IMG/VR virus record: IMGVR_UViG_3300009514_000092
Coordinates: 1-23,325 of that record
Length of the DNA stretch: 23,325 bases
Source: a virus
Reading direction: 5' to 3' (one strand)
The position numbers and the translations under genes were made by a program. A model generated the notes under the pieces. It ran no database searches and was not told where the DNA came from. It saw only the letters and a program-made list of their open reading frames with translations. Below, piece by piece: positions 9,562 to 22,665 of this stretch (positions within the stretch are counted from its first letter, which is position 1; every line of letters begins with the position of its first letter).

Positions 9562-9854
9562 TGGAAGAAAAAGAAATCCAGGCCGACGTCGAAGAGGCAC
9601 CGGTTAAAATGGAAGAACCAGAAACCAAGGAATCTAAAAAGCCCCGCAAGCCCCGGAATCATTCCGGGCCGGAAGAGGCGCCCATCGAAAAGTGGGCGGA
9701 ACAACTCAAGACGCCAGGGTGGGCCCTGGCCGGCACCAAACGGCTAAACCGTTGGGGCCAGGGCCGGGTGGTTACGCAGCGGCAATACGAAAAGGCAATC
9801 GAAGAGTTTACCCGCGGGCCAATGGACCAGCCGCGCAAAACCGGAGGTAACTAA
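9561..9854 (+). CDS. Small conserved protein between gp37-like and sheath genes
   Basis: A 97-residue protein. The first ~50 residues are charged and low in complexity (Glu/Lys/Pro). The C-terminal part contains EKWAEQLKTPGWALAGTKRL and VVTQRQYEKAIEEF, a short motif of the sort found in small proteins next to the sheath in other Mu-like phages. It occupies the gp38 position. One-base overlaps with both neighbours suggest tight translational coupling. Function unknown. Confidence 0.6.
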   Translation: MEEKEIQADVEEAPVKMEEPETKESKKPRKPRNHSGPEEAPIEKWAEQLKTPGWALAGTKRLNRWGQGRVVTQRQYEKAIEEFTRGPMDQPRKTGGN

Positions 9855-11308
9855 TGTCTCAAGCAGGTGTTGAACAATATCAAGGCGATGGTGGCGTTGG
9901 CGGCGGCGGTGCGGTTGTCGAAGGGCGGCATGCCAAAATCGGCGTCAGTCAATCCGGCACCAACAACGTGGTTACCGTCCAACGCGATCCCAATGCGGTC
10001 GCGACTGATTTCGGCGAGGGGCCGTTGGCCGACTCCCTACGTCAAAGCCTGCTGAGCGGAGCGCGCGAGATCTATGCGGTCAAGGCCGATGCGGATGTTG
10101 ACGGTACCGTTGGCGCCACGGCGGCCGACGCCGGCAACGGCGGCGACGGAACCTTGGCCTCCGGACTCTCGGCTGGTTACAGCAGCCCGCTCAATGCCTA
10201 CGACGCTGTCGTCGAAATAGTCGACCCCGGTGAGCAGGGCGTAGCTACCTTCCGCTATTCGTTGGACGGCGGCGACACCTGGAGCCAGGCGATTACCGTC
10301 CCGGTCGGAGCTCCCGGTGTCTACGATATTCCCAACACGGGTGTAAAGCTGAGCTGGGCGGACGGAACTCCGGTTTCGTTCCAAGCCGGAGACAAGTGGA
10401 CCTTTACCTGCACCCAGCCCACCGCGAGTTCCAGCAGCATCATCGCGGCGATCGACGCGCTCTTGGCGACGCCGTACGTTTACGAATTCATTCACGTGGT
10501 CGGGCCCGGCGCTTCCGCACTCTGGACGGCCTTACAAACCAAAGCCGACGCTTTGGTCGTCGCCAATAAATTTCTCGGCATTGTGGTCGAGTGGCGTGGT
10601 TTGAATTCGGGCGAGACGGTCGCCCAATGGCAAACGGCCTACCTGGCCGAGGTCGCGTCATTCGTCGGCAAGCATATCTGCGTCGTCGTCGGGCGCTGTA
10701 ACATCGTCGACCCGATCACCCTGCGTCAGTTCGAGACCTCGGCCGCCGGCATCATTTGCGGGCGCCTGTCGAAGATTCCGGTACAGGCCGAAGCGGGCCG
10801 CGTGGCCGACGGACCCTTGCCGATGATCGCCGGAACCAGCGAAACCGATTCCGGCATTCGCCCGGTGGGCGCTGAAACCTACACCAGCGTCATTGACGAT
10901 GCCTACGGCACCATGCTCACCACCCACCCGGGAAAGAAAGGCGTCTTCGTCAACGCGACGCGCCTCTCGGGCGGTCCCGGCTCCGACTATCAGCACTTCG
11001 ACCGGCGCCGGACGATGGACAAAGCCTGCCGCATCACGCTCGCCAAGTTGATCGAGCGGGTCAACGACGAGTTCGCCGGCGACCAAAGTGCACTCGATGC
11101 CGTCAAGAATGATGTCGAGGGAGAGCTGAAAAAGCAAATGCGCTCCGGCGCGCGGCCGAACGTCGTGGCCGTCGGGGTTACTTTCCCGGCCGGGCAGGAT
11201 GTCCTGTCGAGCGGGATTCTCGAAGTCGAAACCTGGATGGTACCCGTCGGGCATACCCGACGGCTCAAGAATACCCTGCGCTTCGTCGTCTCGGCGCCCA
11301 GCGCCTAA
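9854..11308 (+). CDS. Contractile tail sheath protein (Mu L/gp39-like)
   Basis: A 484-residue protein of the tail sheath family. Visible landmarks are the N-terminal VSQSGTNNVVTVQRDPNAV region, a central beta insertion (about 85-185, with VATFRYSLDGGDTWSQAITV), and a C-terminal region with DKACRITLAKLIERVNDEFA and the final LEVETWMVPVGHTRRLKNTL strand. The sheath contracts to drive the tube into the cell. GGAGG lies 6 nt upstream and the ATG overlaps the preceding TAA by one base. The next gene is the tail tube, as in all contractile phages, so the pair identify each other. Confidence 0.88.
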   Translation: MSQAGVEQYQGDGGVGGGGAVVEGRHAKIGVSQSGTNNVVTVQRDPNAVATDFGEGPLADSLRQSLLSGAREIYAVKADADVDGTVGATAADAGNGGDGTLASGLSAGYSSPLNAYDAVVEIVDPGEQGVATFRYSLDGGDTWSQAITVPVGAPGVYDIPNTGVKLSWADGTPVSFQAGDKWTFTCTQPTASSSSIIAAIDALLATPYVYEFIHVVGPGASALWTALQTKADALVVANKFLGIVVEWRGLNSGETVAQWQTAYLAEVASFVGKHICVVVGRCNIVDPITLRQFETSAAGIICGRLSKIPVQAEAGRVADGPLPMIAGTSETDSGIRPVGAETYTSVIDDAYGTMLTTHPGKKGVFVNATRLSGGPGSDYQHFDRRRTMDKACRITLAKLIERVNDEFAGDQSALDAVKNDVEGELKKQMRSGARPNVVAVGVTFPAGQDVLSSGILEVETWMVPVGHTRRLKNTLRFVVSAPSA

Positions 11309-16882: not shown

Positions 16883-17244
16883 CGGATGTATTACTCGACA
16901 GCAACGGGGAGTTCGTCCTCGACGCGCAGTATGGCGACCTGACCGCGGTGTCGGGAATCGAGCAGGTGTTGCAGGACTTGCGCCACCGGGCGCTTACGCC
17001 ACGCGGTTCCCTGGCCGAGGACACCAGTTATGGGTTCGGCCTGGTGCAATTCGTAAACGAGGAAGCAGCTATCGCGCGTCGGCTGCTGGTAGGCGGCCTG
17101 GCCGCCGAGCTCGCCCGCGATGAACGCCTAGACGCAACACCTTCCGTCAGTGTTCGGCAGTCGGCAAGCGAAACGGATACGACCGAGGTGATCGTGACCG
17201 GCACGATTGACGGCACACAAGTAAGTTTCACGGAGACAGTCTGA
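16879..17244 (+). CDS. Baseplate protein, Mu gp46 / P2 W / T4 gp25-like
   Basis: A 121-residue protein with the compact gp25/W-type fold signature: FVLDAQYGDLTAVSGIEQVL, then LRHRALTPRGSLAEDTSYGF, and C-terminal VSVRQSASETDTTEVIVTGT. It is a central wedge component that starts sheath polymerisation. It overlaps both neighbours (ATGA and TGATG). Gene order spike-gp46-gp47-gp48 is the canonical Mu/P2 baseplate order. Confidence 0.85.
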   Translation: MTDVLLDSNGEFVLDAQYGDLTAVSGIEQVLQDLRHRALTPRGSLAEDTSYGFGLVQFVNEEAAIARRLLVGGLAAELARDERLDATPSVSVRQSASETDTTEVIVTGTIDGTQVSFTETV

Positions 17245-18398
17245 TGGCGGTACCGGAATTCAAAACGCAAGAAGAAGTACTCGAGGACATGATGACCGAC
17301 GCTGAGTCGACGGTCGGCATTTCCAGTTTCGATGTTCGTCGCACCGGCGGTGTCATTCACGGTATCCTATATATAGTGTCCAAGGCGATCGCGGCCGCTT
17401 ACTCGGTGTTGAATGACGCGTTGAGCCAGGCCTTTATCACACTTGCCGGCGGGACCTATCTCGATAACCTGGGAAACGATTACGCGCGGCCGCGCGCCGT
17501 GGGTACTAAGACGCGGGGAAAGGCTCGCTTTTACCGGGCGTCGTCGAGCGGTAATAAAACGATACCCCTTGGCACCATCGTCGGGACCGATGAAGACGCC
17601 AACGGAAATGTGCTGACATTCCTCGTATTGGCCGACACGATATTGCCGGACGGTGAAACCGAGGTGCAGGTCTTGGTTGAAGCGGCGCAGATCGGCAAGC
17701 GCTATAACGTCGGCCAACTCGCAATTACTCAAATACTCACACCGATCGCGGGGATCGACGGAGTTCTAAACGATTTCAGCCCGCAGTGGATCACCGTCTT
17801 TGGCACCGACGCGGAAACCGATGATACGTATCGGGCGCGATTACTCGGCCGCTGGGACGCGATCGCGGCTACTAAGCCGACCGAAGGATTTGCCGAATGG
17901 GCCTTTGAGGTTTCGGGTGTCGGCACCGTTGCCGTCGACGATACAAACCCGCGGGGCGCCGGTACCGTCGATATCATTATTTTGGGGGCGGACGGAGGGC
18001 TACCTTCAGCTCAGCTGATCGCAGACGTTCAAGCTTTATTTGATTCTAGGACTGGGTTGACCGACGACGTATTAGTGCTCGGCCCGTCCACCGTTGCAGT
18101 CGATATTGACGTTACGGTCAGCAAACACCCCACCGACGGCGAGCTCGCGGCCGTGCAGGCCGACATCGAGGGCGCGCTGACCGCCCTGTTTACCTACGAT
18201 GCCAATTACCCCGGAATCGCTCAGCTCGGTATCGGCGACGATGTGAAGCTTGCGCGAATCAAACAGGTGGTGATGAGCAGACCCTACGTCGTCGACGTTA
18301 CGGTTACGACCCCGGCCGCGAATGTAGTCATCCAGTTCACCGAGATGTCAACCCTCAACAGCCTGAACGTTGTGATGCAAACGGCTGACGAGACCTAG
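17244..18398 (+). CDS. Baseplate wedge protein, Mu gp47 / P2 J-like
   Basis: A 384-residue protein of the baseplate J family: starts with FKTQEEVLEDMMTDAESTVG, contains QAFITLAGGTYLDNLGNDYA and RPRAVGTKTRGKARFYRASS, then TDAETDDTYRARLLGRWDAI and the C-terminal VAVDIDVTVSKHPTDGELAA. J proteins form the wedge ring with gp46 and gp48. It shares a base with the upstream stop and ends three bases before the next ATG. Confidence 0.9.
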   Translation: MAVPEFKTQEEVLEDMMTDAESTVGISSFDVRRTGGVIHGILYIVSKAIAAAYSVLNDALSQAFITLAGGTYLDNLGNDYARPRAVGTKTRGKARFYRASSSGNKTIPLGTIVGTDEDANGNVLTFLVLADTILPDGETEVQVLVEAAQIGKRYNVGQLAITQILTPIAGIDGVLNDFSPQWITVFGTDAETDDTYRARLLGRWDAIAATKPTEGFAEWAFEVSGVGTVAVDDTNPRGAGTVDIIILGADGGLPSAQLIADVQALFDSRTGLTDDVLVLGPSTVAVDIDVTVSKHPTDGELAAVQADIEGALTALFTYDANYPGIAQLGIGDDVKLARIKQVVMSRPYVVDVTVTTPAANVVIQFTEMSTLNSLNVVMQTADET

Positions 18399-18401
18399 AC
18401 G

Positions 18402-19010
18402 ATGAGTAGCGCAATCACCTTTTTCGAGTACCTTTGGCAGCTGCGGCCGCCGTACTTGTCGCGCGTGATCACGGGCGTCAGCGCCGCGCGCGGATTACTG
18501 CAGGTATTCGGCAACGCGCTCGAGGTTTTGCGCACAAATGTCGCCAGAGCGGTTGCCCAATTTACCGTGACAACGGCAGAGGGCAGCTATCTCGACGAGC
18601 ACGGCAAGGTGCGCGGCGCGCCACGCGTCGTCGACGCCGGCGGCACACCCGAGACGGACTCGGTTTATCGTGCCTGGTTGCTGGGGCATTTCGAGCGCTC
18701 AAAATACCGGGGCAACCAGTCTTATTACGTCGCGATTTTGGCACGCTATGGCTTCGACATCACCGTGCAGGAGAAGTACACGACGTACGGTCCCAAGGGT
18801 CCGATCTATACCCGAACAGACTGGAGCGTATTCACAGTCACCCTCAACAGCACCACGGGCGCATATGACGACAGCGTCTTTTTCAACCTCGTGCGGGCAC
18901 TCAAACCGGCTCACACGAAAATCGTTTTCGTGTTCGGACCAGGCATCGTAGGCAAGAACTTCGATACCGGCTGGAACTTCGATACCGGCCTTACCTTCGA
19001 CCGCTTCTAG
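18402..19010 (+). CDS. Baseplate/tail protein, Mu gp48 / P2 I-like position
   Basis: A 202-residue protein. The N-terminal part FFEYLWQLRPPYLSRVITGV through TAEGSYLDEHGKVRGAPR and TDSVYRAWLLGHFERSKYRG resembles the J family in its SYLDEHG and DSVYRAWLL motifs. The middle resembles P2 I in placing HTKIVFVFG before the end. It closes with near-repeats: KNFDTGWNFDTGLTFDRF. It links the baseplate to the fibre encoded next. Assignment to the gp48/I class is by position plus these motifs. Confidence 0.72.
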   Translation: MSSAITFFEYLWQLRPPYLSRVITGVSAARGLLQVFGNALEVLRTNVARAVAQFTVTTAEGSYLDEHGKVRGAPRVVDAGGTPETDSVYRAWLLGHFERSKYRGNQSYYVAILARYGFDITVQEKYTTYGPKGPIYTRTDWSVFTVTLNSTTGAYDDSVFFNLVRALKPAHTKIVFVFGPGIVGKNFDTGWNFDTGLTFDRF

Positions 19011-19021
19011 GAGATCGCAGA

Positions 19022-21709
19022 ATGATACGACCCAAATATAAGTTATTGCTCGTTGCAGTCATATTGGCGGCCGTTGGAGCGCAGGCCGCCCAGGATGTAA
19101 CGATCGATTTTCGTGCACCAGCGAATGCCTCGGTGGTGAACAAGCATATCAGTACCGGAATCCCAGCCGGTATTCATACGGGTTTCGAAGTAATCGACGG
19201 CAGCTCCGCCGGCGAGCTGACAATCACAGCCGGCGTCTTATACACCGATGAAGGAGTGCGCATCGAGGAAACGACCAATATGGTCGACGCCGTGACCGTT
19301 CCGACCAATTCGAGCGGTGTCGACCGGATAGACCTGGTTGTGGCCGAATACACCTACGCGCAAACGATTCCTCAACCGACGGCGAGTTATTCGATAGTGG
19401 TGGGAAGCCCAGTTGCCGCCGGAAGTGCCGGGCAATACGCCTTGGCAACTTTGTACGTACCGAACGGCACGAATGTTCCGACGCGGATCTCGTCGACGGT
19501 CAGGCATTCCCGAACAGCCGACCCGGGTTTCGGCTGGGGATTCGCCAACAACGTATTGAACAAGATTATCATCGGCGACGGTGTCACCTCCGGAGGGCAA
19601 CTGCAGGGGCACGGCGGAATCATCTACGCGATCGACCAGGTCAACCAGCTCGGTGGCGGAACGGTGGAGCTGGTTGGTGATGATTTCGGCGCATACGACC
19701 CGACCCCGGTGAAGCTGAAATCCGGTGTGATCCTCGACGGTGTATCTTCGCGCCAGCTGCGCAACCTCGCCGGTGGATATTTCGGCATCGAGGGAACCAG
19801 CGGCACCGGCGCAATCGCGGACGACGACCGCCTGACCGACGGCGCGAAGGATTTCAACGATTACGGCATCGGCAGCATGGTCTGGGTCACCTCGGGTGTG
19901 AATGCAAACGTTTACTATATTAAGGAGATCGTTTCCGCGACCGAGATCCGCTTGGTATCAATCGACTATGATCCGGTCACATTAACTAATGATGCATCGG
20001 CAACCTATGACCTCTACATCAGCCGTGCCGGTATCCGTAACCTGTATCTCCAAGGCGAGCTGCTCACCTCGGTCAGCGACGCCATTAGACTCAACAATAC
20101 TGTAGGCTGCTTCATCGAGAATGTGGTGATCGACAATCTGGGCAGCGCCGAGACCAACGCGATCGTAACCAGCGGTAACAACCTCTCGTTGCGGCTCGAT
20201 AACCTGGAGGTGGTGCAGGGTTATACCAATGCGCTCAACGCCGCCAGCGGGCTGAACGAAAACTGGAGAGTGCTCAATGGTCAATTTTCCGGGAACGTCC
20301 TGATAGCGACGACCGGCGCCGGCGAGATCATGTACGACAATAACCTAGTGTCCGGTACCGAGACGATTCCCGCGACAGCTGGGTGGCGGGGCCGCAGCGC
20401 GCTGGCGGAGCATAATAAGGATGGAACCCACGCGTTTATCAACACTTTGAACGCCGGCACGGTGACCGGTACCTCCGGCACCTTCGAATCCGCGAAGGTC
20501 GATCATGATCAGGACGCGACGACCTCATTCCACGTGGAAAACGATAACAACACCGGAGGCGCCGCATCGGAAATTGCCGTTACATCCGACAGCGAGGCAA
20601 ATGGTCTCTTCATGATCTGGGTTGAAGGTGCGGGAGTCAACCTGGGCCAAATGACGAGTATCCACGGTACCAGAACCACCGGTATCGCATTTGATGCCGT
20701 ACCGAGCGGGTCGGCCGCTTCCCTCTATTTATATGCTTCCGATTCCGGTGACGTGGTGCGGAACGGGGTGCAGCTGTACCCCGACGGAGACGTGGCTATT
20801 GGTACTTATGACCTGGCACTTTCGTCGACCAACGGTTTCCCGCATCTCTCTGCGGTGACCGGCAAACCGACCGGCAGCCCAGCGCTACTACCAAGTGGGT
20901 TTGCTCCAGTGGTTATGGACGACAGCAATAATGCCGTTTGGGTGTATCTCAGCAGCGCGTGGTACGGGATCGAGCTCTCGACCGATGGAAAGGTGAGCGG
21001 GCAGTTGGCCGAGGATTCCGTGACTGCGCTCGAGCTGCAGGACGACGCTTCGGTTGACGCCAACCGGGCGGTAACGACCAATCATGTGCGCGACTACGCT
21101 ATCACCTCCGCGAAGCTTGCGGAGGACGCGGTCGATGCCACCGCGCTGCAGGACGATGCCTCCGTCGACGCCAACCGGGCGGTAACGACCGACCACATAC
21201 GGGACAGTGCCGTAACCTCGGCGAAGATCGCAAACAGCACTATCGTTGCGGACGATCTCGCGAGTTTCTCGATTAGCAATCTCAAGCTGCAGAGTGGTTG
21301 TGTGAATGAATACAAGGTATCTGGAGCCGTAGCTCGTTGGGTTGCCGGTGCGCACGGTGATGCGAGTGCCGGGCAGTTGGCCGTCGGCAGCAACGAAGCC
21401 GGGCGAGCAGGGAACGTGTCTGCCACGGGAACCAACGGCACCGACGCATACACTGGTGCGGATCACTCGGATTTCTTGATAAGGCGCGAGATCGACGGTC
21501 AGTACAGCATCGAGCCGCCCGTGGTTTCGGGCGCGGCCGATCTTGGTGATTATATTCTGACGGTTTTTCCCGAAACCGGTGACCGCTCTCACAATGTCGC
21601 GATCAATACCACCTACGGAATCCCACACTGGTCGGTTCACTTTTATGACCTTGGTACCGGTGTTCCGGCACTGACGGACTTCTATTTCTACGTTCTGAAG
21701 GTCAACTAA
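19022..21709 (+). CDS. Large tail-fibre/spike-like protein with apparent Sec signal peptide
   Basis: An 895-residue protein in the tail fibre slot. Residues 1-22 look like a Sec signal peptide: positive MIRPKYK, hydrophobic LLLVAVILAAVG, and an AQA-A cleavage site. Residues 24-165 form a beta-rich N-terminal domain. Residues about 205-450 have the repeating short strands of a right-handed beta-helix (VKLKSGVILDGVSS, GCFIENVVIDNL, NLSLRLDNLEVV). Two 37-residue repeats lie at about 663-736. The C-terminal ~130 residues are probably the receptor-binding tip. AGGAG lies 8 nt upstream of the ATG, so the start is well supported. No tail-fibre chaperone follows. It could instead be a secreted or surface protein carried by the phage, but position argues for a fibre. 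Confidence 0.75.
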   Translation: MIRPKYKLLLVAVILAAVGAQAAQDVTIDFRAPANASVVNKHISTGIPAGIHTGFEVIDGSSAGELTITAGVLYTDEGVRIEETTNMVDAVTVPTNSSGVDRIDLVVAEYTYAQTIPQPTASYSIVVGSPVAAGSAGQYALATLYVPNGTNVPTRISSTVRHSRTADPGFGWGFANNVLNKIIIGDGVTSGGQLQGHGGIIYAIDQVNQLGGGTVELVGDDFGAYDPTPVKLKSGVILDGVSSRQLRNLAGGYFGIEGTSGTGAIADDDRLTDGAKDFNDYGIGSMVWVTSGVNANVYYIKEIVSATEIRLVSIDYDPVTLTNDASATYDLYISRAGIRNLYLQGELLTSVSDAIRLNNTVGCFIENVVIDNLGSAETNAIVTSGNNLSLRLDNLEVVQGYTNALNAASGLNENWRVLNGQFSGNVLIATTGAGEIMYDNNLVSGTETIPATAGWRGRSALAEHNKDGTHAFINTLNAGTVTGTSGTFESAKVDHDQDATTSFHVENDNNTGGAASEIAVTSDSEANGLFMIWVEGAGVNLGQMTSIHGTRTTGIAFDAVPSGSAASLYLYASDSGDVVRNGVQLYPDGDVAIGTYDLALSSTNGFPHLSAVTGKPTGSPALLPSGFAPVVMDDSNNAVWVYLSSAWYGIELSTDGKVSGQLAEDSVTALELQDDASVDANRAVTTNHVRDYAITSAKLAEDAVDATALQDDASVDANRAVTTDHIRDSAVTSAKIANSTIVADDLASFSISNLKLQSGCVNEYKVSGAVARWVAGAHGDASAGQLAVGSNEAGRAGNVSATGTNGTDAYTGADHSDFLIRREIDGQYSIEPPVVSGAADLGDYILTVFPETGDRSHNVAINTTYGIPHWSVHFYDLGTGVPALTDFYFYVLKVN
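21008..21229 (+). repeat. Two tandem 111-bp (37-residue) repeats in the fibre gene
   Basis: Units 21008-21118 and 21119-21229 encode AEDSVTALELQDDASVDANR... and AEDAVDATALQDDASVDANR..., each ending in TSAKL/TSAKI. The shared core ANRAVTT is identical at the DNA level over more than 20 bases. A degenerate third start (ANSTIVADDL) follows. Confidence 0.92.
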
Positions 21710-21818
21710 CAGCTACGATGTTTTCTCGGTTTGAAAACGAGAGAGGCGAGGATGTTCGCCATATCCTCACAAGCGCTTGTCACCCCAAGCCCTTCCGGCG
21801 GTCGCCCGTTATCGGCTC

Positions 21819-21841
21819 TCTCCCGAATAAGATCGGGGAGA
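21819..21841 (+). other. Hairpin upstream of the methyltransferase gene
   Basis: TCTCCCGA pairs with TCGGG-(G)-AGA around a 6-nt loop ATAAGA: 8 bp with one bulged G. It contains a GATC at the loop/right arm and lies 42 nt before the chosen start. No T-run follows, so it is not a standard terminator. The 173 bp between fibre and methyltransferase hold no other clear feature. Confidence 0.35.
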
Positions 21842-21882
21842 TACAGGACAGAATGGGTCCGCTATTTCCAGGAGTGCACAAC

Positions 21883-22665
21883 GTGCCGAAATCATCGACT
21901 CCGTTTCGTTGGATGGGTGGCAAGAGCCGCTACGCCAACCGAATTATTGCTTTGTTTCCAAATGATCACCGCTGCTACGTAGAGGTTTTTGGCGGCAGTG
22001 GGGCAGTGTTGTTTTCGCTGCCGCCAGAGATTCGCGTGCGCTCCGAGGTGTACAATGATCTCAACGGGGATCTCGCTAACTTTTTCAGGGTGGCCCGAGG
22101 AGATTATCGATCACTCATTGAGCGCTTGCGGCTCCACCTGGCCAGTCGCGAGGATTTTGAATTCTATCTGCAACAGGATGTTCGCGACCTGGACGCGGTC
22201 GGCCGAGCCGCTCGATTCTTCTACCTCATCAAGAACGGGTTCGGTGGAAAACGGGAGCATTTTGGTTATGCCAGGACGCAGCCACCGGGATTTCATCCGG
22301 AGAGGTTGCCACAAGTCATCGCGGAAACGCACGCGAGGCTCATCAGTGTCTTCATCGAGCAGCAGAGTTTTGGCGAGTTGATCCGGCGGTACGACTCAAA
22401 AGATACACTGTTTTATTGTGACCCACCATACATTGGTCTAACCGGTTACGAGCTGCCTTTTGAAATGGATGATCACTATGCATTGAAAGAGAGTTTGCAG
22501 GCCATTCAAGGACGGTTTTTATTGTCATTGAACGACTGCGAAGAGGCTCGGGATATGTATCGCAATTTTCATTTCGAGACGATCGAGACGGTCTATACCG
22601 TCGCGGCAACCCATTCCAAAAAAGCGAGGGAGTTATTGATCAGCAACTATGAAATAATTACATAG
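21883..22665 (+). CDS. Dam-type (D12 class) DNA adenine-N6 methyltransferase
   Basis: A 260-residue protein with the D12-class layout: N-terminal FRWMGGKSRYANRI, SAM-binding motif VEVFGGSGAVLF (FGGSG about 36-40), a target-recognition region, and catalytic DPPY (about 180-183) followed by the C-terminal SLNDCEEARDMY. It transfers a methyl group from S-adenosylmethionine to adenine, probably in GATC. At the right end of the phage it holds the place of Mu's mom modification gene and may protect phage DNA. I chose the GTG at 21883, with AGGAG 8 nt upstream, because MPKSSTPFRW is where the family sequence begins. ATGs at 21853 and 21718 are in frame; the latter has no ribosome site. Confidence 0.88.
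   Translation: MPKSSTPFRWMGGKSRYANRIIALFPNDHRCYVEVFGGSGAVLFSLPPEIRVRSEVYNDLNGDLANFFRVARGDYRSLIERLRLHLASREDFEFYLQQDVRDLDAVGRAARFFYLIKNGFGGKREHFGYARTQPPGFHPERLPQVIAETHARLISVFIEQQSFGELIRRYDSKDTLFYCDPPYIGLTGYELPFEMDDHYALKESLQAIQGRFLLSLNDCEEARDMYRNFHFETIETVYTVAATHSKKARELLISNYEIIT

What the first reader, a model, noticed from the sequence alone, without database searches (positions are those of the whole stretch)
19022..19090. Sec signal peptide on a phage tail-fibre-like protein
The start is firmly set by AGGAG, and the first 22 residues are a textbook signal peptide with AQA cleavage. Tail proteins assemble in the cytoplasm, so export would be incompatible with normal assembly. Options are that the protein is exported and acts at the lysogen or dying cell surface, that assembly of the fibre occurs outside, or that the hydrophobic end is used as an anchor to the baseplate or target membrane.
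Basis: partly seen in the sequence, partly recalled or inferred. Interest (0 to 1): 0.6.

Follow-up and report, generated by a model that had tools for sequence, protein, structure and literature searches.

The report
Signal peptide on phage tail fibre
A virus of bacteria carries, exactly where its tail-fibre gene should be, a fibre protein that begins with a near-perfect export tag, which is odd because phage tails are built inside the cell; the tag is real by sequence, a few other phages have tagged fibre-like proteins too, and what the export is for is still unknown.

Summary
The 895-aa ORF at 19022-21709 starts at ATG 19022 behind AGGAG; no in-frame start lies upstream and none with a Shine-Dalgarno before residue 87. 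Residues 1-22 (MIRPKYK-LLLVAVILAAVGA-QA) have the layout of a Sec/signal-peptidase-I peptide and scored highest of 1,090 SD-preceded ORFs by a simple rule; SignalP was not available. The protein is a phage fibre by position (directly after J and a gp48-like gene) and by modules. Conserved virion-type sequence begins near residue 61 but near position 44 of the profiles, so the peptide looks like an add-on to a complete fibre. Fibres at the same position in about 17 related phages, and 48 viral ORFs sharing a fibre module (about 40 with a visible N-terminus), lack it. It is not unique: fibre-like ORFs with such peptides occur in L020, L050, possibly L031, a Rhizobium plasmid, and the tail-region protein gp16 of phage PBC5. 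Best reading: a fibre gene that acquired a Sec signal peptide, its product exported late and acting outside the cytoplasm, free or joined to tails after lysis. Export, cleavage and function are inferred. Main rival: an ordinary virion fibre despite the peptide.

The parts
19009..19013 (+). AGGAG Shine-Dalgarno of the fibre gene, overlapping the gp48 stop codon
19022..19087 (+). signal peptide, residues 1-22: n-region 1-7, h-region 8-20, AQA at 20-22
19022..21709 (+). tail-fibre gene, 895 aa
   Evidence: position behind gp48; phrog_28766 and phrog_892 tail fibre, E 1e-9
19202..19423 (+). residues 61-134, conserved segment shared with phage families phrog_9994, phrog_13141, phrog_25635
   Evidence: E 3.5e-8 to 2e-3
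20786..20977 (+). residues 589-652, fibre module related to the YIPTCAGTPTGVP module
   Evidence: phmmer E 1e-10 and weaker in viral fibres; Rhizobium plasmid protein E 3e-10
20999..21415 (+). residues 660-798, tail-fibre repeat region (ITSAKLAEDAV type)
   Evidence: phrog_28766, phrog_892; tblastn hits to cyanophage fibres
18402..19010 (+). Mu gp48-like baseplate/tail protein
   Evidence: PF10076 weak (E 4e-4, below Pfam cut-off); phrog_1160, phrog_203
17244..18398 (+). baseplate J protein
   Evidence: PF04865 E 9e-39
9854..11308 (+). tail sheath, DUF2586
   Evidence: PF10758 E 5e-55; phrog_907

Best explanation
The gene is the phage's tail-fibre gene in its canonical place (J, gp48, fibre), carrying a Sec signal peptide fused in front of an otherwise complete fibre. 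Most likely the product is made late with the other tail proteins, exported through the Sec system and cut after Ala22, and gathers in the periplasm to be set free at lysis. There it would act as a receptor-binding or surface-modifying spike, either free (masking receptors on debris or neighbours) or joined to tails outside the cytoplasm. Shown by sequence: start, signal-peptide layout, fibre identity, gene position, absence of the peptide in relatives. Inferred: a diderm host, export, cleavage, and either use outside the cytoplasm.
For: Start and peptide. Fibre position and modules. Three profile families place their conserved segment about 17 residues nearer the N-terminus than here, as expected if a signal peptide had been added. 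In a looser scan the large SP-bearing ORFs that are not internal to a longer ORF were fibre-like or tail-region proteins (window, L020 16286-17779, L031 18327-18983, L050 12575-13489, L039 Rhizobium plasmid, L101 PBC5 gp16) or a lysozyme (L002). The L020, L050 and L039 proteins have even numbers of Cys, 1.2-2.1 per 100 aa against about 0.5 in SP-less fibres, as for proteins folded in an oxidising compartment (few cases).
Against: If this is the phage's only fibre, efficient export should deprive cytoplasmic tails of it. There is no experiment. No homologue of the N-terminal part was found, so conservation of the peptide cannot be tested. The window fibre has only 2 Cys, so it does not share the Cys signature. 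The rule used is cruder than SignalP. The comparison cases were partly found by homology or picked by me, so recurrence is not an unbiased rate. The host is unknown.
Confidence: 0.42

Rival explanations
1. Ordinary virion fibre with an inefficient or masked signal peptide: the long fibre folds or trimerises too fast to be exported, enough stays in the cytoplasm for assembly, and the N-terminal tail is retained or trimmed without consequence.
For: Canonical fibre position and virion-type N-terminal segment; no second fibre gene seen in the fragment; signal-peptide predictions on core virion proteins are reported, e.g. capsid proteins of Porphyromonas gingivalis phages (PMC10367356).
Against: The peptide is the strongest in the whole sample and relatives at the same position do without it; a strong export signal that costs fibres should be lost.
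Confidence: 0.3
2. The protein is a second, accessory fibre-like protein made for export only (for example to block receptors or modify surface polysaccharide), and the true virion fibre is encoded outside this fragment.
For: The fragment lacks terminase, portal and lysis genes, so more genes exist. In L020 and L050 the SP-bearing fibre-like gene accompanies an SP-less fibre gene.
Against: In relatives the gene directly behind gp48 is the fibre itself, and this is that gene.
Confidence: 0.17
3. The hydrophobic end is an uncleaved anchor that tethers the fibre to the baseplate or to a membrane.
For: A hydrophobic N-terminus at the end expected to attach to the baseplate (sequence).
Against: Core of 13 residues, short for a membrane span; canonical AQA site and polar sequence follow; related fibres attach without such a segment.
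Confidence: 0.07
4. Chance or mis-called start: the peptide is an accident of composition or the real start lies downstream.
For: Only a rule-based score is available; one metagenome-derived sequence.
Against: Chance of the score about 1e-4 from the fibre's composition; strong Shine-Dalgarno at 19022 and none before residue 87.
Confidence: 0.04

Closest known systems
Tail fibres behind gp48 in Mu-like phages (Mu gene S; Thermus phage Riverbug, Meiothermus phage MMP7)
   Same: Gene order sheath, tape measure, J, gp48-like, fibre, with a small gap or overlap behind gp48
   Different: None of these fibres has a signal peptide, and the N-terminal sequences are unrelated
Viral fibres ending in the YIPTCAGTPTGVP module (48 viral contigs)
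   Same: Share the module at window residues 589-652
   Different: No signal peptide in any; the module is usually at the C-terminus there, internal here
Rhizobium lusitanum plasmid protein WP_183686451.1
   Same: Signal peptide and the same fibre module, 39% identity over 64 residues
   Different: Not in an obvious prophage; rest of the sequence not detectably related
Sinorhizobium phage PBC5 gp16 (GDSL hydrolase-like)
   Same: Signal peptide on a protein encoded among virion genes, close to a tail-fibre gene
   Different: A weak GDSL-hydrolase match, unrelated sequence; function untested
Phage endolysins exported by Sec (Lys44 of fOg44; SAR endolysins)
   Same: Phage protein made with a Sec signal (PMC6116005)
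   Different: Lysis enzymes, not tail proteins

Membership tests
Mu-like phage tail fibre | gene directly after J and gp48 in the tail operon | tested here: met
   J 17244-18398, gp48-like 18402-19010, fibre 19022; same order in relatives
Mu-like phage tail fibre | sequence similarity to known fibres | tested here: met
   phrog_28766 and phrog_892, module shared with viral fibres
Mu-like phage tail fibre | present in the virion | not testable with these tools
   needs virion proteomics
Mu-like phage tail fibre | fibre-assembly chaperone gene following | tested here: not met
   A D12 methyltransferase follows instead; not all related phages have such a chaperone annotated
Sec/signal peptidase I signal peptide | positive n-region, hydrophobic core, AXA at -3/-1 | tested here: met
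Sec/signal peptidase I signal peptide | trained predictor score (SignalP) | not testable with these tools
   not available
Sec/signal peptidase I signal peptide | export and cleavage in cells | not testable with these tools
   needs PhoA fusion or N-terminal sequencing
Lipoprotein or Tat signal peptide | lipobox Cys or twin-arginine motif | tested here: not met
   No Cys near the cut, no RR in MIRPKYK

The most novel reading that the evidence does not exclude
A tailed phage exports its own main tail fibre through Sec and completes its tails outside the cytoplasm, at or after lysis, so that fibre attachment is spatially separated from tail assembly.
Probability: 0.15. Interest if true: 0.8.

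Novelty: new variant of a known kind. Interest (0 to 1): 0.5.

Why it matters
Tailed-phage assembly is generally taken to be wholly cytoplasmic. A fibre with a strong Sec signal in the main fibre position, with scattered tagged fibre-like proteins in other phages, points to an exported class of receptor-binding proteins that could block superinfection, protect progeny from debris, or be added to tails late. It can be tested with one fusion and one N-terminal sequence. Ten searches of the held open-access library found no description of it, which is limited evidence because most subscription papers are not held.

Tried and rejected
Single-protein scans of viral contigs found no relative of the fibre, J or capsid, nor did a scan of genome contigs with J; tblastn of the N-terminal part found nothing convincing in phages. 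A query I made up as a domain consensus pulled one weak hit, the receptor-binding protein of Dulem virus 30, and was not used as evidence. phrog_9994 was not found in 22 related records. DUF2586 was not found in 396 genomes of the phylum of the Acidobacteriaceae MAG, so the host stays unknown. A survey with a DNxxGxITP pattern returned only out-of-frame or fragmentary hits. The single-sequence AlphaFold model was useless (pLDDT 33), so no fold search was made and the beta-helix character of the middle is unconfirmed. L031 as a second case at the same position is ambiguous, since an ATG 37 codons downstream could be the real start. Lipoprotein and Tat signals and an alternative start were considered and rejected.

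Full report
Observation. The ORF 19022-21709 (895 aa) begins at ATG 19022, 8 nt behind AGGAG, which overlaps the stop of the preceding gene. No start codon lies upstream in frame, and the next in-frame start with a clear Shine-Dalgarno is at residue 87, inside a conserved segment. Residues 1-22 read MIRPKYK LLLVAVILAAVGA QA: positive n-region, 13-residue hydrophobic core, AQA before the likely cut, no lipobox, no twin Arg. With a simple rule it scored highest of 1,090 SD-preceded ORFs of at least 100 aa in the window and the loci held at that time; random sequences of the fibre's composition reach that score in 0.01%. SignalP was not available, so this is a strong rule-based assignment, not a trained prediction.

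What the protein is. The window is a 23,325-base virus record of a Mu-like contractile-tailed phage with repressor and Rha-like genes, hence probably temperate: Gam-like protein, head protease, scaffold, capsid, DUF2586 sheath, tape measure, J, gp48-like protein, fibre, D12 methyltransferase. The fibre matches tail-fibre profiles in residues 660-798 and fibres of cyanophages and others in tblastn. Residues 589-652 are related to a module of many viral fibres (YIPTCAGTPTGVP), found in 48 viral contigs by pattern and supported by phmmer in most of them. Residues 61-134 match phrog_9994, phrog_13141 and phrog_25635 at profile positions from 43-47, so those families have some 17 fewer residues in front: the signal peptide looks like an addition to a complete N-terminal domain.

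Comparison with relatives. A sheath alignment brought in 27 viral loci, besides five phages found by tblastn. Where J and the following genes are present, the gene behind gp48 has no signal peptide in about 17 cases. None of the 48 viral ORFs with the YIPTC module has one, though several of those ORFs are cut at the contig end. The tail or fibre genes checked in Mu, KS10, RcapMu and D3112 have none.

It is not unique. A looser scan for SP-bearing ORFs of about 180 aa or more returned, apart from starts internal to longer ORFs and a lysozyme in L002, these: the window fibre; L020 16286-17779 (497 aa, fibre-like, in the tail operon of a DUF2586-sheath relative that also has an SP-less fibre behind gp48); L050 12575-13489 behind an SP-less fibre, with a second hydrophobic-leader Gly-rich gene after it; L031 18327-18983 directly behind gp48, though a downstream ATG could be its true start; the Rhizobium plasmid protein L039 that shares the fibre module; and PBC5 gp16 close to a tail-fibre gene in an isolated phage. 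Some of these were reached by homology or chosen by me, so this is recurrence, not a rate. The L020, L050 and L039 proteins have 4-8 Cys, even in number, at 1.2-2.1 per 100 aa against about 0.5 in SP-less fibres; the window fibre has 2 Cys, PBC5 gp16 none, and L031 one.

Mechanism. Best supported is a fibre gene that gained a Sec signal peptide, with late synthesis in the tail operon (no promoter signal above chance), export, and action in the periplasm or outside after lysis. Whether it is used free or is added to tails outside the cytoplasm is open. The strongest rival is that it remains an ordinary virion fibre despite the peptide; signal-peptide predictions on phage capsid proteins are known (PMC10367356). 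Phage use of Sec is established for endolysins, and diffusing depolymerase activity from virions or free enzymes is known from plaque halos (PMC6116005).

Novelty. In ten searches of the open library I found no description of Sec signal peptides on tail fibres; the library is limited and I opened only some of the papers listed. I rate it a new variant of a known kind, moderately interesting, with a clear and cheap test.

Noticed in passing
L020 16286-17779: 497-aa fibre-like protein with signal peptide and three close Cys pairs, inside the tail operon of a DUF2586-sheath phage that also has an SP-less fibre behind gp48.
   Followed up: partly
L050 12575-13489 and 13480-14400: Two consecutive genes with signal-peptide-like starts behind a fibre gene, the second with a Gly-rich domain (PF21722).
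   Followed up: partly
L101 10482-11531 (phage PBC5 gp16): GDSL-hydrolase-like protein with a signal peptide encoded among virion genes of an isolated Sinorhizobium phage.
   Followed up: partly
window 21718-22665: D12-class adenine methyltransferase directly behind the fibre gene, where Mu has a fibre-assembly gene.
   Followed up: no
window 21030-21270: Two similar repeats in the fibre (ELQDDASVDANRAVTTNHVRDYAITSAKLAEDAV and ALQDDASVDANRAVTTDHIRDSAVTSAKIANSTI).
   Followed up: no
window 20786-20977 and L039 5001-5186: In both signal-peptide-bearing proteins the fibre module lacks the Cys (YIPTC) that about 60% of the 48 SP-less copies carry; too few cases to weigh.
   Followed up: no
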